NCBI GenBank assembly: GCA_963169045.1
Contig: CAUJDF010000002.1
Span: 1 to 64,000, forward strand
DNA from: Myxococcota bacterium
GTDB lineage: Bacteria > Myxococcota_A > Bradymonadia > UBA7976 > UBA1532
Reading direction: 5' to 3'
DNA: 64,000 bases
The notes below the pieces were generated by a model. The model saw only the letters and a list, made by a program, of their open reading frames with translations, did no database searches and had not been told where the DNA came from. Shown here piece after piece: positions 7,848-17,781 of the stretch; position 1 is the first letter of the stretch; each line of letters opens with the position of its first letter. The translations under genes and the position numbers were made by a program.

Positions 7848-8264
7848 ATGAAGCGCTTCAAGAAGATCGACCACGTCGGCATCGCCGTGCCCCGCCTCGC
7901 CGAGGCCATCCCGCTGTACGAGGCGCTGCTCGGCGCCCTGTGCGAGCACGTCGAGGAGGTGGCCGACCAGAAGGTGCGCACCGCCTTCTTCAGCGTCGGC
8001 GAGAGCCACTTCGAGCTGCTCGAGCCCACGGCGGACGACAGCCCCATCGCCCAGTTCCTGGCGAAGGGGCGGCGCGGCATCCACCACCTGTGTGTCGAGG
8101 TGGACGACCTCGACGCCGTGCTCGCGGAGTACCGGGCGAAGGGCGTGCGCCTCATCGACGAGCAGCCGCGCGTCGGCGCCCACGGCAAGCGCATCGCGTT
8201 CGTCCACCCCGCCGGGACGGGCGGCCTGCTGCTCGAGCTCAGCGAGACCCCGAAGGATCACTGA
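7848..8264 (+). CDS. mce: Methylmalonyl-CoA epimerase
   Basis: The 138-residue protein belongs to the glyoxalase/VOC fold and matches methylmalonyl-CoA epimerases in length. These interconvert (R)- and (S)-methylmalonyl-CoA in propionate and odd-chain or branched-chain catabolism. The first beta-alpha-beta unit begins KIDHVGIAV with metal ligand His9. A second unit contains GIHHLCVEVDDLDAVL, and the C-terminal strand ends FVHPAGTGGLLLELSE with the Glu ligand. ATG at 7848 is preferred over the ATG three codons earlier because it gives the usual short lead to IDHVGIAV. The stop overlaps the end of the convergent hydroxylase gene by 7 bp. No mutase subunit lies nearby. Confidence 0.9.
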   Translation: MKRFKKIDHVGIAVPRLAEAIPLYEALLGALCEHVEEVADQKVRTAFFSVGESHFELLEPTADDSPIAQFLAKGRRGIHHLCVEVDDLDAVLAEYRAKGVRLIDEQPRVGAHGKRIAFVHPAGTGGLLLELSETPKDH

Positions 8265-8794
8265 CGGGCGAGGCGGGCCATCAGGTCGGCGTCGGCGCGC
8301 TGGTCGGGCGTCAGGGCGTCGAACGGGTCGCGGCACAGCTTCGCGAAGGCCTCCGGGTCGCGCTCCCCCTCGACGACCCCGCCCGAGGCGAGCCACGCCT
8401 CGACCGCCGGCGCCGGCGGCAGATCGACGATCAGGTGCCAGCGCGCGGGGCCGTCGTTGATCGCGCCATGGGGGCGGCTGTTGTCGATGGCCCACATGGC
8501 GCCCGCCGCGAGATGCAGGAAGCGGCCCTCGACACACAGGCGCGCCCCGGGCGAGGTCACGAGCGGCACGTGCACGCGGTGATGCTCGTCCCAATGTCTC
8601 GTGTTGTCGACGTGCAGGTGGATCCACGATCCGGGCGGGCTCGACCCGACCCATGCCACGGTCGCCGGCACCGGGAAGGCCGTGTCGAGGAAGGCGCGAA
8701 TCCGCGGCAGCGATGACAGGATGGGTAGATCGCATCCCGTGCCGGTGACGAGCTCGCTGGCCGGATAGGGGCCCGGCGGGCCGCCGCGCAGCAC
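8258..8794 (-). CDS. Aspartyl/asparaginyl beta-hydroxylase-like dioxygenase, 5' end severed by a transposon insertion
   Basis: The frame encodes a double-stranded beta-helix oxygenase of the Asp/Asn beta-hydroxylase family (Fe(II)/2-oxoglutarate). The iron-site region reads HVDN, then HRVHVPLVTSPG and the later NSRPHGAIN. The best start left today is GTG at 8794, giving 178 residues, but the frame stays open and clearly coding upstream (WHVGTDFLVLRGG preceded by RFVRLPGDVAPEPL) to 8940, where it meets a 9-bp target duplication and the left end of a mobile element, then hits a stop. No ATG, GTG or TTG exists in that lost part. The intact gene would have had 235 codons, with its first codons now at 15964-15943. 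It is therefore probably N-terminally truncated and may be inactive. Confidence 0.82.
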   Translation of the reverse strand: MLRGGPPGPYPASELVTGTGCDLPILSSLPRIRAFLDTAFPVPATVAWVGSSPPGSWIHLHVDNTRHWDEHHRVHVPLVTSPGARLCVEGRFLHLAAGAMWAIDNSRPHGAINDGPARWHLIVDLPPAPAVEAWLASGGVVEGERDPEAFAKLCRDPFDALTPDQRADADLMARLARQ

Positions 8795-8940
8795 CAGGAA
8801 GTCGGTGCCGACGTGCCACTTCCACTGGCTCGGCGTCCACGCGGGCGAGGCCGCCCGCAGCTCGGCGGCCAGCGGCTCGGGCGCGACATCGCCGGGCAGG
8901 CGGACGAAGCGGTACCCCTTGACCGCTGGACGCGAACTGC
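8795..8940 (-). pseudogene. In-frame 5' coding remnant of the Asp/Asn hydroxylase, without a start codon
   Basis: This stretch continues the hydroxylase frame upstream of the GTG at 8794 without stops and with host-like codon use. It encodes a segment containing RFVRLPGDVAPEPL and TPSQWKWHVGTDFLVL. It ends exactly at the 9-bp direct repeat (8932-8940) that borders the mobile element, and the next in-frame codons, inside the element, include a TAA. The missing 22 bases of the gene, from ATG, are found on the far side of the element at 15943-15964. Confidence 0.78.
8932..8940. repeat. Left copy of 9-bp target-site duplication (GCGAACTGC)
   Basis: GCGAACTGC here is repeated exactly, in the same orientation, at 15934-15942 just outside the opposite terminal inverted repeat. 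Nine base pairs is a duplication length known for several IS4-family elements such as IS10 and IS50. Confidence 0.85.
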
Positions 8941-8954
8941 TACGACCTTACCCA
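8941..8954 (+). repeat. Left terminal inverted repeat of the mobile element
   Basis: TACGACCTTACCCA. Its reverse complement matches 15920-15933 at 13 of 14 positions. Similarity stops on the inner side after position 14. Confidence 0.82.
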
Positions 8955-8993
8955 TTTCTCCGGCCCGCTCGAACGCGCAATCTCAGGCGACCA

Positions 8994-10148
8994 CTATCGC
9001 GCCCACGAAACATCGATCCGGTCGACGCAGAGGTAGAACTGCCGCTCCCACCAGACGCGAAACGCGATGCGGTGTCCTTGACCTGGACTGTCAAAGGGCA
9101 CGACAAACGGCTGCCACACCTGCGGCGCACCGAACGCGTTCCGGAGGATCGGGTAGCCTCGGCCTTGTAGTTGCTGGTCGTTCTGGTCTGCGTCGATGAT
9201 CTCAAGGCGCCCGTAGTTCGTCTCCGGCGAGAGGCCTGCGTCGTCACCGACGAGCAACCAGAACGTCGCAACGAGCCGACCTTGCGGCAAGCCGGCATAG
9301 GGTCCATGCACGATATGGCCGCCCAGGTCGTTCGGACTTGGGACGCCGCACCAGCGCCCGTCCTCAGGACGACCGGAATTGTGCTGGAACGCCGGTCCTT
9401 CGGCTTCGAAGACGAGCGGCGCCTCCTGGCAGCGTCCCTCGCGACACGCCTCGAAGATCGGGCACGGCGCGTTCTCGTCGACCTGGTCATCGCAGTTCTG
9501 GTCGACGCCGTCGCAGACTTCGGCCGCCTCGATCGGTCCGCACGCGTTGCAGGCGTTCAGCACGCCCTCGTCGCTCTGGCCGTCGCAATCATTGTCTTGG
9601 CCGTCGCACGCTTCGACCGGGACGGCGCCGCAGCTACCGCACGCGTTCTGCACGCCTTCGTCGGTGCGCCCATCGCAGTCGTTGTCCTGACCGTCGCAGA
9701 ACTCGTCGGTACACTGCACAGCGTCGACGCGCGCATCTAGCACGCTCATATCTACCGACACGTTCGTGTCTGTCGACACGTTTGCGTCAGCACTCTGCGA
9801 TCCATCGACTAGCGATCCACTGTCACGGTCGACCGCGCTGTCGGTCTCGTGCGTATTCGTGTCCGCTGCCACGTGGCTTGCGTCGTACGGGCGAACGGCA
9901 TCGCCGGCGCTGACCGCGGCGTCGCGCGGGACGCCGCCATCGCGATCCACTTCGTGTGCGTCGGCGCGGCCGGCATCGAGCTGTCGTGAATCACTTCGTG
10001 CGCAGACGCCGCCGACGGCGCACACCTCGCCGGCGCCGCACTCATCGTTGATCGCGCATTCGTTTGCGACTTCGGGGGAGCAGGCGCCCGCAATCAACGC
10101 CGAAACCAGGGGCAACCAGCGAATGGGGTCCGGTGTACGGGGGCGCAT
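8994..10148 (-). CDS. Lipoprotein with MopE-type DxDxDxDCDG metal-binding repeats (transposon cargo)
   Basis: The 384-residue protein has a signal peptide with a lipobox-like end (AGAC, Cys23) and a Cys-rich segment CAINDECGAGEVCAVGGVC. A Thr/Asp/Val-rich low-complexity linker follows (about 55-160). Then come three copies of the myxobacterial putative metal-binding motif, of the form C-DGQDNDCDGxxDEG-xNACxxCG (about 160-245); the third is CDGVDQNCDDQVDE. The last ~130 residues form a separate domain with beta-strand character (GRLVATFWLLVGDD, HRIAFRVWWERQFYLCVDRIDV), possibly a carbohydrate- or lectin-like module. Such repeats bind Cu or Ca in MopE-like proteins. Its stop lies 39 bp inside the left end of the element. 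It is divergent from the XRE gene. Confidence 0.8.
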   Translation of the reverse strand: MRPRTPDPIRWLPLVSALIAGACSPEVANECAINDECGAGEVCAVGGVCARSDSRQLDAGRADAHEVDRDGGVPRDAAVSAGDAVRPYDASHVAADTNTHETDSAVDRDSGSLVDGSQSADANVSTDTNVSVDMSVLDARVDAVQCTDEFCDGQDNDCDGRTDEGVQNACGSCGAVPVEACDGQDNDCDGQSDEGVLNACNACGPIEAAEVCDGVDQNCDDQVDENAPCPIFEACREGRCQEAPLVFEAEGPAFQHNSGRPEDGRWCGVPSPNDLGGHIVHGPYAGLPQGRLVATFWLLVGDDAGLSPETNYGRLEIIDADQNDQQLQGRGYPILRNAFGAPQVWQPFVVPFDSPGQGHRIAFRVWWERQFYLCVDRIDVSWAR

Positions 10149-10191
10149 GGGGCAAGTCCTCTCCTGCCGCGCACCGACATCTGGCGGTCGC

Positions 10192-10209
10192 AGTCCTCGG
10201 TCCAGGACT
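10192..10209. promoter_or_regulatory. Inverted repeat AGTCCT-N6-AGGACT in the lipoprotein/XRE divergent region
   Basis: A perfect 6+6 bp inverted repeat sits in the 137-bp gap between the divergent lipoprotein and XRE genes, 14 bp from a second near-palindrome, CCTTATAAAGG (10221-10231). XRE repressors often bind such dyads next to their own gene. AT-rich TTATAA could also serve as a -10 element in either direction. Function is inferred from position only. Confidence 0.4.
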
Positions 10210-10285
10210 ACATTCGTATCCCTTATAAAGGAAATCAGGCGCTACTACCACGCCCTACGGTGCGGTCCCCTCGGAGGGGGCCGGC

Positions 10286-10540
10286 GTGGACGACGATCTG
10301 CATCGGCGCGTTGCGGCGCGTATTCGTGAGCTCGCCAAGGCGCGTGGCTTACCGCTGTCGCACTTGGCTGACCGCGCAGGCGTTTCGCGCTCGCACTTCT
10401 GGGAAGTGCTGCGCTGCGGGCGCTCACCGACGCTGTCGTGGCTGAACGAAATCGCGAAAGTGCTCGAGGTGGACGTCGTCGCACTCTTGTCGACGAACGA
10501 GTCCGGCGCTGATGGGCAGCGCAGGCCGGGGAGCGCCTAG
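10286..10540 (+). CDS. XRE-family helix-turn-helix transcriptional regulator
   Basis: An 84-residue single-domain DNA-binding protein. Residues 5-68 form the five-helix Cro/CI fold: RVAARIRELAKARGLPLSHL, then ADRAGVSRSHFWEVLRCG as helix-turn-helix, and SPTLSWLNEIAKVLEVDVVAL. A GTG start follows a good Shine-Dalgarno (GGAGGGGG, about 7 bp away). The polar tail (69-84) looks disordered. As the only obvious regulator in the element and adjacent to dyad-symmetric DNA, it is a good candidate for controlling the cargo or its own divergent promoter. Confidence 0.85.
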   Translation: MDDDLHRRVAARIRELAKARGLPLSHLADRAGVSRSHFWEVLRCGRSPTLSWLNEIAKVLEVDVVALLSTNESGADGQRRPGSA

Positions 10541-10623
10541 GGGACGCTCATCCGCTGAAGCGATCTCGCGCTCGCCAACGTCACCCAGGCGGGGGCCGCA
10601 GCGCCTGCGCGAGCGCTACGGGA

Positions 10624-10845
10624 TCAGCCCTTGTGCGTACAGGTCAGAGACGAGCACTTCACCGGCAACATGTTCGCCTTGCCAGAGGGCACGAGGTTGA
10701 ATCGCTCTTCCTGCAGCATTCCCTTGGCGGTGAGGCGCTCAACGACATCGAGTGCCTTCCGCAAACGTTCTCCCCTTGCGGCCATCTCGCGGCTCTGGAC
10801 TTCCATCGCTGCGCTCTCGATGGAATTTTGGTGCATGGTCGTCAT
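10624..10845 (-). CDS. Small protein (73 aa) translationally coupled to the SDH-type protease
   Basis: The ATG at 10845 overlaps the TGA of the upstream protease gene (ATGA), with GGAG 8 bp before it, so it should be translated by coupling. The 73-residue product is a soluble charged helix (residues 10-45, EVQSREMAARGERLRKALDVVERL), then a short C-terminal part with KGMLQEERFNLV and a CSSLTCTHKG tail whose two Cys and one His could bind a metal. I do not recognise a family. Strict coupling implies a stoichiometric partner, such as adaptor, inhibitor or antitoxin, of the protease. Confidence 0.65.
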   Translation of the reverse strand: MTTMHQNSIESAAMEVQSREMAARGERLRKALDVVERLTAKGMLQEERFNLVPSGKANMLPVKCSSLTCTHKG

Positions 10846-11783
10846 AGGGTACTCCGGTATGCTGAGTGCATGCAGTAGACCTGCTTCATTCGCTGCGCGT
10901 ACTCGAACAGGGTGTCGTAGTACTCGCGAATGAGGCTGTGCTTTTCTGCATCGGCCTGAAAGTCGTCAATTTCCAGTCGCAAGTCGTTCGTCAGGGTCTT
11001 CATACCCAGATAGCGGCCGTGACTCAACCACAGCTTGTTGTCGTTCAGCTTCTTCGCGATCTCCTCCGCTCTTTCCTGTTTCTCTTCGACTGTTACTGGT
11101 TGCCCCTTTTTGAGGGGATCCGTGCGGTGGACGGTCCAGTCCTTAAACTTGTACTCCACGAGCCACTTCTTGAGAAAGTGGATCGACAGGTCGCGAGCCT
11201 GCTCGTATGCACGGATCGTACCAAGATGCTGCCGACTTAGCAACGCAAACTCAGCATCCGAAAGCGTCCCGGCGAGGCTCTTCGTGATCAGCTCGTTCAT
11301 CTTGTCCAGAAACCCGAGGGCCGGGACGAACTGATGCGAATCGCCATCATGGACCTGGACCTGTGGATCAATGGGGCCGAGACTTGACGAGTAGTCCATC
11401 CAAATGCGGTCGCCAGACATGACGAGAATTGTTCCGGCGGACATCGCCGCATCCGGAACAACGAACCACAACTCGTCGTAGTGGTGCCGCATGATCTCGA
11501 CCATCTTCTCCGCCGCCTCTGCACTCCCCCCATCCGTTTGTAGGAACATCGCGAGGCGGCGCCGCCGTCCAGGACGGTTGGCCAAGTGCTCAATGAAATC
11601 CCGGAACTCCCGAAGAAGGGCGTCGTGGATCGGCCCGATGAAGGTCGCCACGTCCGCTTCGAATGACGCCTCAAGCTTGGCGGCCTTCTCCGCCAAGAAT
11701 GCAGCAACCGTAGAATCCAACAGGTGATACGTAGCCACGTTGAACCCGCCCAAGATCCACTTGACGTGCTTGCCCACTAACAC
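10842..11783 (-). CDS. SDH_sah/ClpP-like serine peptidase (serine dehydrogenase proteinase family)
   Basis: The 313-residue protein has a crotonase/ClpP-type core. The strand and oxyanion turn MFLQTDGGSAEAAEKMVEIM (about 79-98) is followed by VVPDAAMSAGTILVMSGDRI with the likely nucleophile Ser115. Then comes SSLGPIDPQV, the arrangement of SDH_protease (PF01972-type) and SppA-like enzymes. No signal peptide or membrane segment is evident, so it should be cytosolic. A helical region (about 150-300) follows and could be an oligomerisation or substrate domain. The GTG at 11783 is the first start in the frame; a second GTG two codons on is possible. It lies 31 bp after the transposase stop on the same strand and is coupled to the 73-aa gene. 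Confidence 0.8.
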   Translation of the reverse strand: MLVGKHVKWILGGFNVATYHLLDSTVAAFLAEKAAKLEASFEADVATFIGPIHDALLREFRDFIEHLANRPGRRRRLAMFLQTDGGSAEAAEKMVEIMRHHYDELWFVVPDAAMSAGTILVMSGDRIWMDYSSSLGPIDPQVQVHDGDSHQFVPALGFLDKMNELITKSLAGTLSDAEFALLSRQHLGTIRAYEQARDLSIHFLKKWLVEYKFKDWTVHRTDPLKKGQPVTVEEKQERAEEIAKKLNDNKLWLSHGRYLGMKTLTNDLRLEIDDFQADAEKHSLIREYYDTLFEYAQRMKQVYCMHSAYRSTL

Positions 11784-11814
11784 GCCAAGGCGGCTGTCTC
11801 AATAGGGTTTCTCA

Positions 11815-13098
11815 TTACCATCTTGGTGGTGACCACCCGTCGTTTCTGCTCCGCCGACGCGCCCAGTGCGTCAGCCGCCTGAGGGCGTCGCCGAGCCCGC
11901 GCACGAGCCGATAGCGGATATCCGCCGGCGGGCGGCCGAATGCTAGCACCGCTTCTGCGACCTTCGCCGCGACGCCTGCTGCCTTGTCGCGGAGCCAAGC
12001 CACGAAGCCGTAGGCGATTGTCGCGAGGAGCACCAGGCGGCGGACGCCCACGAAGGAGAGTGCGCGTAGGTCTTCCATGCGCACGCCCCAGCCGCGGCTG
12101 TCCTTCATGGAGCGGGTGGCCTCCTCGCATTTCCAGCGGCGGATGTACGCCTCGACGGCTTCGGCTGCAGCCGCACCGCTCGCCACATACTCGCTGGCCA
12201 ACAGGACGGTCGGCTCCTTGCCGAAGCCGTGCACGACGAGCAGGCTCAGCACGGGCCCAACAGCGTGCCCTTCGCCGTCAACGAGGCGCACCTTCCGCAC
12301 GCCGATGCCCAGTTTCACGTCACGGAACTTCCGGCGGCGCCCACCCCGGACCGTCATCTGGTGACGTACCGGTGTCCGCCACGCCATCGTCCAGGCCTCG
12401 TTCACGACGCCGTCGACGTCGGCGAGCCGGCGCGGGTAGTCGCCGCCGATCTTCAGGCGCGTGATCCACCGCAGCTGCAGACGCTCGAGGCCCAAGAACA
12501 TCTCGAGCCGGTCGAAGCCGCGGTCCATCACCCACCAGGCCTCGCGGCCGACGTGCGGTGCCGCCGCTTCGATTCCGGCGAGGAACTCTGCCGTCTCGCC
12601 GCCTTTCCCGGCGGTTTTGTACGAGAATGCTCGGTACAGCACTGGGCACTGGTTGCCGTTCGGCAAGTGTGCTTCGACCTGCACGACGGGATACCCGATC
12701 GTCGGCCGGCCCTCGCTTCCGTCATACACCCAGCAAACGTCCTCCATGCCGTGCTCGAGGTTCGCGTACGGCTTCGAGAGGTCGGTACGGTCAACGGCGA
12801 CAACGACACCCCGCCCGTTGTCGCGTGTCGTCATCGTGGCGACTTGCTGCAGGTGCCGTTGGAGGAGCGCCTCCTCATCGAGCCGACCCGAGTTCAGGTT
12901 TCTCGAGAGGCGCTTCTCCGTGTACAGCAGCTGCGTATCCTCGCGCAGCGCACGCCCGATCTCGGAGAGCATGAGCGAACGGGACTCGAAGATCCCGGAG
13001 ACCATGTCCCAGAGCCATTTGCGCTGCGGCCGGTACTGGTCCTGGCCGAGCTGCCCGATGTACTCGCCCAGGAGCCGCAAAGTGGGCTCCACGGGCAC
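11815..13098 (-). CDS. IS4-family DDE transposase
   Basis: A 427-residue transposase. It has the first catalytic Asp in VVVAVDRTDLSKPYA and the second in AWWVMDRGFDRLE. The exact IS4 signature Y-(2)-R-(3)-E-(6)-K lies in YIRRWKCEEATRSMK with the catalytic Glu. Length is normal and the frame intact, so it may be active. GC and codon use are closer to the host than those of the neighbouring cargo. I found no private inverted repeats tightly flanking this gene, whereas the outer 14-bp repeats and 9-bp duplication fit an IS4-type reaction, so it may be the transposase of the whole element. The start codon lies in a hairpin (13093-13115). Confidence 0.9.
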   Translation of the reverse strand: MPVEPTLRLLGEYIGQLGQDQYRPQRKWLWDMVSGIFESRSLMLSEIGRALREDTQLLYTEKRLSRNLNSGRLDEEALLQRHLQQVATMTTRDNGRGVVVAVDRTDLSKPYANLEHGMEDVCWVYDGSEGRPTIGYPVVQVEAHLPNGNQCPVLYRAFSYKTAGKGGETAEFLAGIEAAAPHVGREAWWVMDRGFDRLEMFLGLERLQLRWITRLKIGGDYPRRLADVDGVVNEAWTMAWRTPVRHQMTVRGGRRRKFRDVKLGIGVRKVRLVDGEGHAVGPVLSLLVVHGFGKEPTVLLASEYVASGAAAAEAVEAYIRRWKCEEATRSMKDSRGWGVRMEDLRALSFVGVRRLVLLATIAYGFVAWLRDKAAGVAAKVAEAVLAFGRPPADIRYRLVRGLGDALRRLTHWARRRSRNDGWSPPRW

Positions 13099-13115
13099 AA
13101 CTCCGTGTTGCGCCC
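13093..13115 (-). promoter_or_regulatory. Hairpin sequestering the transposase start codon
   Basis: In the mRNA sense, GGGCGCAAC pairs with GTTGTGCCC (8 of 9 pairs plus a G-U-compatible position), leaving a 5-base loop ACGGA. The GTG start is within the 3' arm and the only Shine-Dalgarno-like bases (CGGAG) span the loop. Such structures are used by IS elements to block translation from read-through transcripts. Confidence 0.45.
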
Positions 13116-13188
13116 CGCGTAGTTCGTGCTATGCTCGGTTTGCCGACGGAGCCTAGCCGACCCGCAAGGGCGGTTGGTTTCTGGCCAG

Positions 13189-13219
13189 CGGGGCTCGGTG
13201 TTGGTAGCACCGAGCCCCG
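13189..13219 (-). terminator. Strong 12-bp hairpin downstream of the winged-helix gene
   Basis: CGGGGCTCGGTG (13189-13200) and CACCGAGCCCCG (13208-13219) pair perfectly around a 7-base loop, 28 bp past the stop of the coiled-coil/winged-helix gene and before the transposase on the same strand. There is no U tract, so it may act as a Rho-independent-like stop or as an mRNA 3' stabiliser. It would also shield the transposase from read-through. Confidence 0.55.
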
Positions 13220-13246
13220 CGGAACTTCGCCTCAGCTGCCGCTTTC

Positions 13247-13831
13247 CTAGTCTTGCTTCTCGCGCACCTCCACATCCGGCGCCAAGCGGTAGCGGCCATT
13301 CTCGAGCACGGCGAACCCCTTCTCGGACGCCCGGCGAAGAGCAATGTCGATCGTCCCACGCGGGAGTCCAAGCGCGGTCGCAACGTCCTTCGACGCCGCG
13401 GCGCCCCGCGCGTACAGGAACCTGAGCGCGCGAACGGTGGCGCTTTCGCCCTCCTTACCTGGTGTTGCGCGCGTAAGGAGCGGCGTCTCGCGAACCCTAT
13501 CGCCTTCGAGGCGTTCGACACGCACGAAGGCGATTTCGCCGTCTACGCCGGGAGGTGACGCGGCGATCGTGCGCTCGTCCCGCAAGACGGGTGCAGTTGC
13601 CGACTGGGCACTTGCGCCGGGGACCGGTGCTGGAACTTCGCGCGCGACCAGCGCCTCGAGTCCCTCGACGACCCTTTCGTACGCCTTGGCCAGCTCCTCC
13701 GCGGCTTGCGCGGCGGCTTGTTCACGCGCCGCGATCGCGTAGTGCTCCTCGGCGCGTGCGCGATACTGCGCCGCGAGCGAGCGACTCCGCTCGACTTCCT
13801 CGCGATGCTGCTTGTGCACGTCCTTGCTCAT
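13247..13831 (-). CDS. Coiled-coil protein with C-terminal winged-helix domain
   Basis: A 194-residue protein in two parts. Residues 1-65 are a long heptad-like helix rich in Glu, Arg and Ala (RSLAAQYRARAEEHYAIAAR, then AAEELAKAYERVVEGLEALV). After a Pro/Ala/Ser linker, residues about 128-190 read as a winged helix: SATVRALRFLYARGAAASKD, then VATALGLPRGTIDIALRRAS, and EKGFAVLENGRYRL as the wing, similar to IclR/MarR-type domains. It may dimerise through the coiled coil and bind DNA, possibly as regulator or accessory factor of the element. The ATG at 13831 has no strong Shine-Dalgarno. I cannot place it in a named family. Confidence 0.65.
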   Translation of the reverse strand: MSKDVHKQHREEVERSRSLAAQYRARAEEHYAIAAREQAAAQAAEELAKAYERVVEGLEALVAREVPAPVPGASAQSATAPVLRDERTIAASPPGVDGEIAFVRVERLEGDRVRETPLLTRATPGKEGESATVRALRFLYARGAAASKDVATALGLPRGTIDIALRRASEKGFAVLENGRYRLAPDVEVREKQD

Positions 13832-14120
13832 GGACGCTCACGTTATTTTATGTAGCGGCCGCCACACAAGAGAAAACGCAAGTGAGTGTAGTGTAGCACC
13901 AAGCCGGAGGGGGTCTCGCCGACGCCCAATCCGATCTGCCCACACGACCTGGCGCTCTAGCGGCAACTACATCCTGATGAGGACGATCTGGCGGGCGCAC
14001 TCGCCGCTACGTTGCAAAGGTGCCGACGATTCCGTTGAGAGTTGCTGATGCGAATGGCGCCGCGTTCAGCAACGGCCTATCCTCACGCCCGGGGTTGATG
14101 AGAGCGGTCGGGGGGAAGGG
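13832..14120. other. Intergenic region between divergent cargo genes
   Basis: This 289-bp stretch separates the divergent winged-helix and HipA-like genes and has lower GC than the chromosome. Next to the winged-helix gene it contains TAAAAT within CATAAAATAACG (minus-strand sense), a plausible -10 element, but no clear -35. Next to the HipA-like gene it contains only the purine-rich Shine-Dalgarno. No repeats, tRNA or open frame with coding character were seen. Confidence 0.4.
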
Positions 14121-14975
14121 GTGAGCGGGTCTACGAGTGGTTGGACGCCCAGAAGTATCGAGACGATCGTCAGGTGCCTCGGCACCAGCACCGAATGCGC
14201 GGTTGTTGAAACGGACGACGGCGCCACCGCATACGCCAAGTTTGTCGGCAACGCCGAGGGGCCACACGTGCTCGCGTGCGAGTGGATCGCGGTGCATCTT
14301 GCGGCCCTGCTGGGGTTGCCTACGCTTCAGTTCGCCATCGTGGACCTGCCCGCCACACTGGCGTTTCGCTTCCCAAGTGGCGGTTTCGCAGAGGCCGGAC
14401 CCGCGTTCGTAACGAAGGAGGCACTGGACGCGATCCCCTGGTCCGGGCAGACCGAGGATCTCCGGAAACTCGAAAACTTGGCCGACATCACCCGTATGGT
14501 GGTCCTGGACACGTGGATCCTGAACTGTGACCGGTACCGTCCATCAGGGCCTTCGCGCCTGGTCCGGCGAAACTGCGACAACGTCCTACTCGTCGGAGAA
14601 GGGGCGCGTGCCGGTCACTTCCGCCTCGTCGCTATGGATCACACTCACAGTTTCACCTGTGGGCGCTCGCTTGACGCGCGAATTGCCAACATTGGGCAGA
14701 TCAAGTCGATGGACATCTTCGGGCTGTTCCCGGAGATCATCGAGTTCGTTCAAAAGGAAGTCGTTCTCGACTGCGCTGCGCGACTGGCGGCGGTCAGTGC
14801 AGGGGCCATTCTACCTGTGGTAGAAAGCGTTCCGAGCGCCTGGGGATTGGACGCAGCGACGCGAACTGCACTGGTGAGGTTTGTACACGAGCGTGCGCAG
14901 TTTCTTTCCACGACGATATTGGACTCACTTGGAACGATTTGCTGGCCGCAGACGACGATGATGGGGGTGTGCTGA
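14121..14975 (+). CDS. HipA-like kinase family protein
   Basis: The 284-residue protein resembles the compact HipA_2-type kinase fold. It has a strand region ECAVVETDDGATAYAKF with a likely ATP-binding Lys, and a helix ACEWIAVHLAALLGLPTLQFAIV. The catalytic-loop-like segment is LDTWILNCDRY followed by NCDNVLLV (an N-D-x-x-N-like arrangement), and the metal-site-like strand is FRLVAMDHTHSF with Asp-His. HipA-related kinases phosphorylate tRNA synthetases or other targets and act as toxins or defence effectors; the substrate here is unknown. GTG start with a strong purine-rich ribosome site (GGGGGGAAGGGG). Its TGA overlaps the ATG of the next gene (TGATG), so the two are coupled. There is no HipB-like antitoxin directly upstream. 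Confidence 0.75.
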   Translation: MSGSTSGWTPRSIETIVRCLGTSTECAVVETDDGATAYAKFVGNAEGPHVLACEWIAVHLAALLGLPTLQFAIVDLPATLAFRFPSGGFAEAGPAFVTKEALDAIPWSGQTEDLRKLENLADITRMVVLDTWILNCDRYRPSGPSRLVRRNCDNVLLVGEGARAGHFRLVAMDHTHSFTCGRSLDARIANIGQIKSMDIFGLFPEIIEFVQKEVVLDCAARLAAVSAGAILPVVESVPSAWGLDAATRTALVRFVHERAQFLSTTILDSLGTICWPQTTMMGVC

Positions 14976-15826
14976 TGCAGGGCTTCTACTGCACTGTTCA
15001 GTTTTGCCCGGACATAGTTCGCGCAGAAGTGGTCAATGTGGGCGTCCTGTTGTTCGTGCCCACTCTCGCATTTCTCGACGTTCGGTTTGATTCGGAACTC
15101 GCGGGCCTTCGCAGGTTCTCGACAGGAGCGGCGTTCGACCTGGAACGTATCCGCTACATGGTCAAGAGCGTTGAGGCGCGGCTGAAGAAGTCCCCGTTAA
15201 CAATCAACACGTTAGAAGACCTTCAGCGTTTTGTGGCGACACGCGGCAATCAACTTCAGCTTGCAGTGCCGCGTCTAGTCGCGGTGGACGAACCTGCATC
15301 GACGCTCAAGAGACTCTACGAGAGATTGGTCGTCACGAACGCACCGGCCCCCCGAACTCGTCCGAGTGCACGCGCGCTACGTAAGCGGCTGAAGGCGCAG
15401 CTCTCCCTCGCGGGTCTCCGCGACCGAATTGAATTCGATCGGCAGATTCGGATTCCTGTCATTGGTCTCGAGCGTACTGTGCCATTCGCGTATAAGAATG
15501 GTCACTGGAACTTGATTGATCCGATCGAGTTCCGTGGAGATCCGGCAATCGTTCTTCGCCGTGCCTTGGAGATATCGGCCGAAGGGCGTCTCTTGCACGA
15601 ACACCCTGCCGAGGCTGAGAACGCGCAGTTGGTTGTTGTGTATCGGTTCGCCACTGACAGGTTGGAAACAGCAGTTGGCGACCGGATCAGAACCGTCTTG
15701 GAGTGCGAGGGAGGGATCCGGGCACTCCCCGAGCAGGAGATTGACACTCTAGTGGAGAGTGTACGTAAGGACGCGCACATCCTCCGCGAGGGGGTTCCTC
15801 TGCATTTACCACTTGGCGGATCCTGA
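14975..15826 (+). CDS. DUF3037-type partner of the HipA-like kinase
   Basis: The 283-residue protein starts MQGFYCTVQFCPDIVRAEVV and continues with NVGVLLF, the characteristic opening of the DUF3037 family (YxVvrYvPdpvReEavNVGVil), which is commonly found next to HipA_2-like kinases. The C-terminal half is a mixed alpha/beta region without motifs I can name. The start overlaps the kinase stop by two bases, ensuring balanced expression. Its role, such as antitoxin, substrate adaptor or co-effector, is not established. It is the last gene of the element, ending 107 bp before the right end, in a gap where nothing else was seen. Confidence 0.75.
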   Translation: MQGFYCTVQFCPDIVRAEVVNVGVLLFVPTLAFLDVRFDSELAGLRRFSTGAAFDLERIRYMVKSVEARLKKSPLTINTLEDLQRFVATRGNQLQLAVPRLVAVDEPASTLKRLYERLVVTNAPAPRTRPSARALRKRLKAQLSLAGLRDRIEFDRQIRIPVIGLERTVPFAYKNGHWNLIDPIEFRGDPAIVLRRALEISAEGRLLHEHPAEAENAQLVVVYRFATDRLETAVGDRIRTVLECEGGIRALPEQEIDTLVESVRKDAHILREGVPLHLPLGGS

Positions 15827-15919
15827 AGAAGCCCTCAACGCAATCTGCGCCCACCATCTTGCTAGCGACGACGGCGTCCTGCGCCAACGAGCAGCGCCGG
15901 TCTGTCAGCGCGTAAATCT

Positions 15920-15933
15920 TGGGTAAGGTCCTA
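15920..15933 (-). repeat. Right terminal inverted repeat of the mobile element
   Basis: TGGGTAAGGTCCTA. Read on the minus strand it is TAGGACCTTACCCA and differs from the left repeat at one position (third base). Confidence 0.82.
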
Positions 15934-15942
15934 GCGAACTGC
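15934..15942. repeat. Right copy of 9-bp target-site duplication (GCGAACTGC)
   Basis: Identical to 8932-8940 in the same orientation. It immediately follows the right terminal repeat and precedes the severed first codons of the hydroxylase. Confidence 0.85.
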
Positions 15943-15964
15943 GTTCATGTTTTCGCTGATACAT
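15943..15964 (-). pseudogene. Severed first codons (ATG onwards) of the Asp/Asn hydroxylase gene
   Basis: On the minus strand these 22 bases read ATG TAT CAG CGA AAA CAT GAA C. Joined to the duplication at 8940-8932 and onward they continue in frame into the hydroxylase: 22 + 683 = 705 bases = 235 codons ending at the TGA at 8258. The restored ATG would lie 29 bp from the halogenase GTG, in divergent orientation. Confidence 0.72.
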
Positions 15965-15993
15965 GTCTCGGCATTCTACGCGGGGAGGGGCAA

Positions 15994-17781
15994 GTGATCG
16001 AGCAGAGAGACTGTGTCGTCATCGGGGGCGGTCCCGCCGGGAGCGCGTTCTCGGCCGTCGTGCGCAAGTACTCGCCGGACGCGACGGTGACCGTCCTCGA
16101 GAAGTCCCGCTTCCCCCGATGGCATATCGGGGAGTCGACGATCCCCGTGGCCAACGCGGTCCTGCGTGACATGGGTGTCTTCGAGCAGCTCGAGAGCGAC
16201 CCATCGGTCATCAAGAAGATGGGTGTCACCTACATCTGGGGCCGCGATCGCAAGCCGTGGAGCGCCGACTATCTGAAGCTGCGCGAGGCGCGCGACGCCG
16301 CGGGCGCGGCGGGCGGACAGACGGTGATCGACGTGTGCGGTCAGGACTTCAGTGAGCTGATGCGTCGCGCCGAGATCCGCGACACGCCGTTCACAGCGTT
16401 CCACGTCCGGCGCGACGAGTTCGATCACCTGCTGCTGAACCGGAGCCGCGAGCTCGGCACCGACGTCCGCGAAGGCACGCGCATGACCGAGGTCCTGCGC
16501 GACGGCGCGGGCGCCGTGTGCGGCGTGCGCTGGGAGGACGACGCCGGCCGGGAGGGCGTGATCGAGACGCCGTTCGTGCTCGACGCGAGCGGTCAGTCGT
16601 TCATGCTGACGCGCCAGCAGCGTGTGTACGACCCGGACATGAACAACTTCGCGGTGTTCGGCTACCTGCGCAACGCCGGCTGGAAGGTGGTGTTCAACGG
16701 CACGCGCGACCGGACGTCCGCCTTCATCAGCGCGGTCGAGAAGGGCTGGATCTGGTACTTCCCCGTCGCCGACGACGTGATGAGCGTCGGCGCCGTCACG
16801 AAGGCCGAACACTTCAAGGATCGCCTGAAGGACGTGGATCTCGAGTCGCTCTTCTGGGAGATGCTGCGCTCGTGTCCGGAGGTGGCCGACCTCGTGAAGG
16901 ACGCCTCGCTGCGCGAAGACATCCTGCCGCGCGGCGAGCGGGTGGGCGCCATCCGCGACTGGTCTTCGTGGGCGCCGGATCCGGTCGGTCCCGGCTGGGC
17001 GGCCGCCGGCGACGCGGCGGTCTTCATCGATCCCATCCTGTCGACGGGGGTGACCATCGCGCTGCAGAGCGCTCACCGCGCGGCCTACACCTACAACACC
17101 GCTCGAAAGCGGCCCGAGATCGCGGGCGCCGACCTCTGGGGCGCCTATCGCGACTACCTGCGCGAGGAGGCGAGCGCCTTCCTGCAGATGGCGCGCTACT
17201 TCTATGGCAACAACAAGGCGGCCGAATCGTGGTGGTGGGAGGCGCATCGCGTGCTCCACGCGCGCGGGCGGCTCGATCTGTCCGACAAGCAGATCGCGTT
17301 CACTCTGGCGACGGCGGGGTTCTTCCCGCGCATGCGTTCGCTGAGCAGCGAGACGATCGCGCCGCTGCTGGCCCGCCTCGCGGGCGACGTCGAGGTGAGC
17401 GACGTCTGTGGCGTGATGCACGAAGACGGCGTGCCGCCCGCCGACCAGCTGCCGGGGCGGAGCTACGCGGTCGAGGCGCCCTTTCGCCTCGCGCTCCGCT
17501 CGCAGCCCGAGGTGGTGGAGGGGCAGCCCACCGGCCGCCTCGACCTGCACCACGACCTGATCAGCGATGATCCGCGCTTTCTGCACCGCCGCGCGGGCGC
17601 CCCGAGCCGCGTGTCGGCGGCGCTCGCGCCGATCGTCGACGCCGTGCCGCGACACCGCACGGTCGACGACCTCGTGGCGGCGGCGCCCGGCCTGCTCGCG
17701 GGCCATGCCCCGGACGCGGTGCGGCAGGCGACGCTGGCCATGCTGCGCGTCGCGGCGCTCAAGGGGTTCGTGACGGTGTGA
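15994..17781 (+). CDS. Flavin-dependent halogenase with C-terminal PqqD-like segment
   Basis: The 595-residue protein is a FAD-dependent halogenase-type enzyme. It has the nucleotide-binding GGGPAGS (11-17), RWHIGESTIP after the first Rossmann unit, and WIWYFP (about 252-257) as the WxWxIP-like halogenase motif. A second FAD contact lies in GDAAVFIDPILSTGV. Such enzymes chlorinate or brominate indole or phenol groups, free or carrier-bound, with FADH2 supplied by a reductase; no reductase is nearby. After the catalytic part, the last ~75 residues (RTVDDLV, then AVRQATLAMLRVAALKGFV) look like a PqqD-type winged helix. GTG at 15994 is chosen (Shine-Dalgarno GGGGAGGGG); the in-frame TTG at 15919 would start in the transposon's end. 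Confidence 0.85.
   Translation: MIEQRDCVVIGGGPAGSAFSAVVRKYSPDATVTVLEKSRFPRWHIGESTIPVANAVLRDMGVFEQLESDPSVIKKMGVTYIWGRDRKPWSADYLKLREARDAAGAAGGQTVIDVCGQDFSELMRRAEIRDTPFTAFHVRRDEFDHLLLNRSRELGTDVREGTRMTEVLRDGAGAVCGVRWEDDAGREGVIETPFVLDASGQSFMLTRQQRVYDPDMNNFAVFGYLRNAGWKVVFNGTRDRTSAFISAVEKGWIWYFPVADDVMSVGAVTKAEHFKDRLKDVDLESLFWEMLRSCPEVADLVKDASLREDILPRGERVGAIRDWSSWAPDPVGPGWAAAGDAAVFIDPILSTGVTIALQSAHRAAYTYNTARKRPEIAGADLWGAYRDYLREEASAFLQMARYFYGNNKAAESWWWEAHRVLHARGRLDLSDKQIAFTLATAGFFPRMRSLSSETIAPLLARLAGDVEVSDVCGVMHEDGVPPADQLPGRSYAVEAPFRLALRSQPEVVEGQPTGRLDLHHDLISDDPRFLHRRAGAPSRVSAALAPIVDAVPRHRTVDDLVAAAPGLLAGHAPDAVRQATLAMLRVAALKGFVTV

What the first reader, a model, noticed from the sequence alone, without database searches (positions are those of the whole stretch)
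8932..15942. A 7.0-kb cargo transposon with intact terminal repeats and a 9-bp target duplication
TACGACCTTACCCA at 8941-8954 and its 13/14 inverted match at 15920-15933 are flanked directly by identical GCGAACTGC copies. Between them lie accessory genes with visibly lower GC and no host-like bias. The 9-bp duplication and the internal DDE/YREK transposase agree with an IS4-type reaction, but a single-transposase IS4-type unit of 7 kb with seven cargo genes would be unusual: these are normally simple insertion sequences or composite elements.
Basis: partly seen in the sequence, partly recalled or inferred. Interest (0 to 1): 0.8.

Follow-up and report, generated by a model that had tools for sequence, protein, structure and literature searches.

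The report
Cargo transposon with Tn5-like transposase
A 7-kb jumping DNA element, built around a distant relative of the Tn5 transposase and carrying a probable anti-phage gene pair, has inserted into a gene of a GC-rich bacterium, and it shares accessory genes with a second element in the same genome that uses an unrelated transposase.

Summary
Window 8941-15933 has 14-bp inverted ends (13/14) inside identical GCGAACTGC copies. Ends plus duplication alone are modest evidence: two other such pairs occur in the window by chance. The decisive evidence is the empty site. In four relatives the flanking hydroxylase and halogenase genes lie next to each other, and joining the window's flanks with one repeat copy restores a hydroxylase start, MYQRKHERSS..., that aligns with theirs. 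The element inserted just after codon 7.

Its only transposase (427 aa) has DDE and YREK motifs and a predicted Tn5 fold (Foldseek E 2e-11), but scores far below IS4-family cut-offs, so its subgroup is unassigned. Duplication length is ambiguous (9, 7 or 5 bp). Cargo includes a HipA-like kinase + DUF3037 pair, the validated HipAD/DS-6 anti-phage type.

No second copy with these ends was found, so the proposed shared-end family is not supported. However, a second element in the same genome shares three accessory genes (secreted MopE protein, HTH, coiled-coil wHTH) while its transposase (IS1595) and ends (perfect 21-bp repeats) differ. This is a transporter-IS-like unit transposon with accessory modules shared across transposase families: a new variant of a known kind.

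The parts
8932..8940 (.). left copy of the target duplication GCGAACTGC (9-bp reading)
8941..8954 (+). left terminal inverted repeat TACGACCTTACCCA
8994..10148 (-). secreted protein with MopE metal-binding motifs; shared with element E2
   Evidence: PF11617 E 2.9e-12; 134/231 aligned positions identical to the E2 copy
10286..10540 (+). Cro/CI-type HTH regulator, divergent from MopE gene; shared with E2 and E3
   Evidence: PF13560 E 2.3e-8; 40/68 and 76/83 identical to the E2 and E3 copies
10624..10845 (-). 73-aa ORF overlapping the protease-fold gene by 4 bp; no family
10842..11783 (-). SDH/ClpP-like serine protease-fold protein
   Evidence: PF01972 E 9.6e-12
11815..13098 (-). DDE/YREK transposase with predicted Tn5 fold
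   Evidence: PF01609; DDE and Y, R conserved; Foldseek Tn5 E 2.3e-11
13188..13220 (-). hairpin of 13 perfect pairs upstream of the transposase gene
13247..13831 (-). coiled-coil plus winged-helix protein; only phylum homologue is in E2 of the same genome
14121..14975 (+). HipA-like kinase (HipA_2), probable toxin/effector of a HipAD-type defence pair
   Evidence: PF20613 E 1.3e-9
14975..15826 (+). DUF3037 protein, probable antitoxin partner (ATG at 14975 overlaps the kinase stop codon)
   Evidence: PF11236 E 5.2e-15; PDC-M66B E 4.5e-11
15920..15933 (-). right terminal inverted repeat TAGGACCTTACCCA
15934..15942 (.). right copy of the target duplication GCGAACTGC
8258..8931 (-). body of the interrupted hydroxylase gene
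   Evidence: PF05118; relatives intact
15943..15964 (-). severed start of the hydroxylase gene (ATG TAT CAG CGA AAA CAT GAA C)
   Evidence: joined frame MYQRKHERSS

Best explanation
Window 8941-15933 is a single-unit cargo transposon (a transporter-IS-like element). Shown by sequence: it inserted near the 5' end of a hydroxylase gene, duplicated a short target, and separated the first codons from the rest. Inferred: its own Tn5-like DDE transposase (11815-13098) binds the 14-bp inverted ends and moves the whole 7 kb by cut-and-paste, possibly with help or control from the element-borne wHTH protein. The cargo is modular: a secreted MopE protein with divergent HTH at the left end, a protease-fold gene pair inside, and at the right end a HipA-kinase/DUF3037 pair that probably acts as a toxin-antitoxin anti-phage system. 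Some accessory genes are shared with transposons in the same genome that use other transposases.
For: Ends and duplication. Empty site in four relatives, and the joined frame MYQRKHERSSRPAVKGYRFVRLP aligns with MYQRRHLRSPDAAPKLYRFLRLP and others. Foreign composition. The transposase is the only one in the element and single-copy in the genome, with conserved DDE and Tn5 fold. No nested-IS ends with duplication around it. E2 in the same genome has the same left-end layout with an IS1595 transposase and different perfect ends: ends and transposase differ together, as expected if each transposase acts on its own ends. HipA_2 + DUF3037 equals PDC-M66/HipAD/DS-6, tested against phage elsewhere (PMC12548924, PMC13092281).
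Against: No second copy with these ends in its genome or in 379 phylum genomes, so the transposase-end match is not shown. Transposase homologues in G297 (40% and 33% identity) had no recognisable ends. The protein is shorter at its C terminus than its closest homologues (427 against 487-499 aa), so activity is uncertain. The structure model has low mean confidence (pLDDT 58, pTM 0.62).
Confidence: 0.75

Rival explanations
1. The element is non-autonomous: its ends belong to an unknown transposase acting in trans, and the Tn5-like gene is a passenger or a nested, decayed insertion sequence.
For: The transposase sits mid-element, with cargo on both sides. In E2 the transposase occupies a different position relative to the wHTH gene. 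Its ends match no IS4 subgroup consensus (PMC2266710). No second copy links the gene to the ends.
Against: No inverted repeats with a duplication bracket the gene alone. No other copy of the gene or of the ends is in the genome. Duplication of 7-9 bp fits a Tn5-like enzyme. E2's ends and transposase differ together from those of the window element.
Confidence: 0.17
2. A backbone element (MopE-HTH at the left end, wHTH inside) is the lasting unit, and transposase-plus-ends modules are replaced over time; the window element is one such state.
For: E2 shares MopE, HTH and wHTH in the same order and strands with a different transposase and ends. A probable E3 shares the HTH at 76/83 with an IS1595-like end remnant. 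G297 has an 85%-identical HTH-MopE block near two divergent homologues of the transposase.
Against: Only two full elements in one genome. In G297 the block is inverted relative to the transposase and MopE motifs are common there. Plain cargo exchange between elements explains the same data.
Confidence: 0.35
3. The repeats are a chance match and the region is an ordinary low-GC genomic island or recombination patch.
For: Comparable IR plus 9-bp repeat pairs occur by chance in the window.
Against: The boundaries coincide exactly with a restored gene in the joined flanks and with intact, adjacent genes in four relatives, and with the composition change.
Confidence: 0.02

Closest known systems
IS4 family (IS50/Tn5, IS10, ISPepr1 and IS231 subgroups)
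   Same: DDE transposase with YREK signature, predicted Tn5 fold, duplication readable as 7-9 bp, one uninterrupted transposase gene
   Different: Scores far below curated IS4 models; ends match no subgroup consensus; 7 kb against 1.15-1.8 kb for subgroups other than IS231 (PMC2266710)
IS231/MIC231 modular elements of the Bacillus cereus group
   Same: IS4-family elements carrying passenger genes
   Different: IS231 has CAT ends, 10-12 bp duplications, 1.45-5.4 kb and extra DNA between the left end and the transposase; here cargo lies on both sides of an unassigned transposase in another phylum (PMC2266710)
Transporter ISs (tIS) of the IS1595 and IS1 families
   Same: IS-type ends and transposase plus unrelated passenger genes; E2 in this genome is of IS1595 type and shares three accessory genes
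   Different: The window element has a Tn5-like transposase and different ends
HipAD / DS-6 / PDC-M66 anti-phage toxin-antitoxin system
   Same: Adjacent HipA-like kinase and DUF3037 genes
   Different: Divergent sequence (PDC-M66A match weak); here it is transposon cargo; activity untested

Membership tests
IS4 family | YREK signature holding the catalytic glutamate | tested here: met
   Y318, R321, E325, K332; Y, R and E invariant in five homologues; definition from PMC2266710
IS4 family | DDE RNase-H fold with beta insertion as in Tn5 | tested here: met
   Top PDB matches are all Tn5 transposase, E 2.3e-11 and up; model pLDDT 58
IS4 family | Passes a curated IS4 family model | tested here: not met
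   NF033591 52 bits against 152; NF033590 29 against 160; NF033592 22 against 115
IS4 family | Target duplication of about 7-13 bp | tested here: inconclusive
   9, 7 or 5 bp fit the same bases
IS4 family | Subgroup-typical ends (mostly CA or CT first) | tested here: inconclusive
   TA first under the 9-bp reading, CT first under the 7-bp reading; no subgroup consensus of PMC2266710 Table 1 fits well
Transporter IS (tIS) | IS-type ends and transposase plus genes unrelated to transposition in one unit | tested here: met
   Unit bounded by empty-site comparison; cargo by Pfam and PADLOC
Transporter IS (tIS) | Ends recognised by the encoded transposase | not testable with these tools
   Single copy; needs a second copy or an assay
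Composite transposon | Two flanking IS copies | tested here: not met
   One transposase gene, internal; no IS at either end
HipAD / PDC-M66 | Adjacent HipA-like kinase and DUF3037 genes | tested here: met
   PF20613 E 1.3e-9, PF11236 E 5.2e-15, PDC-M66B E 4.5e-11
HipAD / PDC-M66 | Toxic kinase neutralised by the DUF3037 protein, with phage defence | not testable with these tools
   Shown for other members: kinase deletion abolishes defence, DUF3037 deletion is toxic (PMC12548924)

The most novel reading that the evidence does not exclude
In these bacteria a conserved accessory backbone (secreted MopE or Cys-rich protein with divergent HTH at one end, coiled-coil wHTH protein inside) is carried by cargo transposons whose transposase-and-ends module is interchangeable (Tn5-like in the window element, IS1595-like in E2 and probably E3), with defence genes as variable cargo.
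Probability: 0.35. Interest if true: 0.65.

Novelty: new variant of a known kind. Interest (0 to 1): 0.5.

Why it matters
As of 2008 passenger genes in the IS4 family were reported only for IS231 (PMC2266710). A Tn5-like unit with seven other genes, including a probable anti-phage pair, extends that to an unassigned lineage. Two transposons with unrelated transposases in one genome share three accessory genes, which makes a question testable: do cargo transposons swap their mobilisation modules, and are some 'passenger' genes really helpers of the element? It also shows a route by which HipAD-type defence can move without phage, plasmid or integrase.

Tried and rejected
Transposase relatives: none by pattern scan with the single protein; only one MAG, the same genome as G297, with the alignment; none in viral contigs; weak partial hits in Thermus plasmids and one phage record. 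TANGACCTTACCCA in other genomes: four single hits, one at a dnaK-like gene start (my reading of the sequence), none paired. The own-genome hit at C61 lies in what reads as coding sequence. Ends of the G297 homologues: inverted repeat plus duplication scan gave nothing convincing; comparison with genus mates was swamped by MopE repeats. MopE co-occurrence was first taken as a family signature, then discounted because MopE motifs are ubiquitous; only the specific shared genes were reinstated after the wHTH and MopE-domain searches. Nested IS: considered, no ends found. Rfam (8000-17000) and tRNA scans found nothing in the element. Literature searches for myxobacterial passenger-gene ISs found nothing in the held library.

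Full report
The observation. The left repeat TACGACCTTACCCA (8941-8954) and the right repeat TAGGACCTTACCCA (15920-15933, minus strand) match at 13 of 14 positions and are flanked by GCGAACTGC at 8932-8940 and 15934-15942. By themselves such pairs are not rare enough in this GC-rich window: three occur, and a Markov model gives 8 in 30 simulated windows. The inverted repeat also extends two bases into the duplication, so the same bases can be read as a 9-bp duplication with TA ends, 7 bp with CTA ends, or 5 bp with GCTA ends.

The empty site. The neighbour on the right is a tryptophan-halogenase-like gene and on the left an aspartyl/asparaginyl hydroxylase-like gene. In four relatives of the same family (G005-G008) the two genes lie next to each other, divergently. 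When the window's flanks are joined with one copy of the repeat, a hydroxylase reading frame appears, MYQRKHERSSRPAVKGYRFVRLPGDVAPEP..., which aligns with the relatives' MYQRRHLRSPDAAPKLYRFLRLP..., MYQRPHEKSPDAVRKPGTFARLPGSFDP..., MYQRPHERSPNAVRKPRTFARLP... and MYQRPHQRSPRAADKPYGFLRLP.... The insertion therefore lies just after codon 7 and cut the gene from its start. This is the strongest evidence that the boundaries are right and that this was one insertion.

The content. The element has lower GC (0.58-0.67 against 0.70-0.75) and lower GC3 (0.63-0.84 against 0.90-0.98) than its neighbours. A DNA search of 57 genomes of the class listed relatives only for the MopE and HTH genes. Genes in order: MopE-motif secreted protein (-), HTH (+), 73-aa ORF (-), SDH/ClpP-like protease-fold protein (-), transposase (-), coiled-coil wHTH protein (-), HipA-like kinase (+), DUF3037 protein (+). 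The last two match PADLOC candidate PDC-M66. Such a pair has been shown to be a stand-alone anti-phage system in which the kinase behaves as toxin and the DUF3037 protein as antitoxin (PMC12548924; DS-6/HipAD in PMC13092281). That this copy is active is an inference.

The transposase. It carries D103, D192 and E325 and the spaced Y-R-E-K signature; the triad, Y and R are invariant in five homologues. Its predicted structure (pLDDT 58, pTM 0.62) matches Tn5 transposase best, E 2.3e-11, with the next different protein at 3e-3. It scores far below all curated IS4 models, so I call it Tn5/IS4-like and leave the subgroup open. It is single-copy in its genome, was not found in the other 56 class genomes searched, and is rare in the phylum: 4 of 379 genomes including its own. 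No inverted repeats with a duplication bracket the gene alone. A 13-pair hairpin precedes it.

A second and a third element in the same genome. The wHTH protein has one homologue in 379 phylum genomes, and it is in the same genome at C74:1749-2297 (44%). There it sits beside an IS1595-type transposase and a STAND/AAA-type ATPase. The right end of contig C70 and the left end of C74 look like the two sides of an IS1182-like insertion in an HTH gene with CTAG duplicated; joining them gives ...KVAEVLEVDPGALL, parallel to the window HTH ...IAKVLEVDVVALL. The joined locus, E2, is 5.2 kb without that IS. It is bounded by perfect 21-bp inverted repeats CGTGGCTATCCGGTTGACGCC with GATGGAAT duplicated. 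Its left end carries a MopE gene (134/231 aligned positions identical) and an HTH gene (40/68) in the same order and strands as the window element. Contig continuity across the IS is inferred, not sequenced. At the other end of C70 an HTH gene 76/83 identical to the window's lies next to another secreted protein gene and an IS1595-like end remnant (17/21 at L083:2791-2811); I call this E3. A 17/21 match also occurs by chance in the window, so E3's end rests on position and subterminal similarity as well.

Reading. The window element and E2 differ in transposase family and in ends together, which fits each transposase acting on its own ends, while they share three accessory genes. In G297, a genome of another family in the phylum, two divergent homologues of the window transposase also lie near an 85%-identical HTH-MopE block, although MopE motifs are very common there. 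I therefore favour a transporter-IS-like cargo transposon whose accessory modules move between elements, and hold the stronger reading (a standing backbone with interchangeable transposase modules) at 0.35; it is a refinement of, not an alternative to, the main explanation.

Comparison with what is known. IS4-family elements with passenger genes are known from IS231/MIC231, and in 2008 this was stated not to have been observed in other IS4 subgroups or IS families (PMC2266710). Transporter ISs are known in the IS1595 and IS1 families (PMC3129680, PMC8496243; concept also in PMC9330008). Later literature not held here may report others. The window element is of that general kind but outside the described subgroups, so I rate it a new variant of a known kind.

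Noticed in passing
L084:9261-10542 and L087:916-4864 (contigs G000:C70 and C74): Second cargo element (E2) with IS1595-type transposase, perfect 21-bp ends and STAND/AAA-type ATPase cargo, sharing MopE, HTH and wHTH genes with the window element; its HTH gene is interrupted by an IS1182-like IS at CTAG.
   Followed up: yes
L087:1642-1714 (-): tRNA-like gene with a four-base anticodon call (ARAGORN 'tRNA-???', cgca) inside E2, between a 155-aa gene and the wHTH gene.
   Followed up: no
L083:1-2811 (G000:C70 left end): Half of a probable third element (E3): HTH 76/83 identical to the window's, divergent from another secreted protein gene, ending at an IS1595-like inverted repeat remnant.
   Followed up: partly
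L022:3885-5856 and L023:11547-13486 (G297): An HTH-MopE-secreted protein block, 85% identical over 1.46 kb, lies near two divergent homologues of the window transposase; L023 also has a coiled-coil protein gene just upstream of the transposase.
   Followed up: partly
window 8258-8940 and 15943-15964: The insertion cuts the start codon off a hydroxylase gene whose divergent pairing with a halogenase gene is kept in four relatives; the two genes may be functionally linked.
   Followed up: partly
window 13188-13220: Hairpin of 13 perfect pairs just upstream of the transposase gene, without a T-run; it may shield the transposase gene from read-through.
   Followed up: no
L023:13723-13820: A repeat of about 100 bp with several copies (83-85% identical) in G220, some at contig ends; probably an unrelated mobile repeat.
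   Followed up: no
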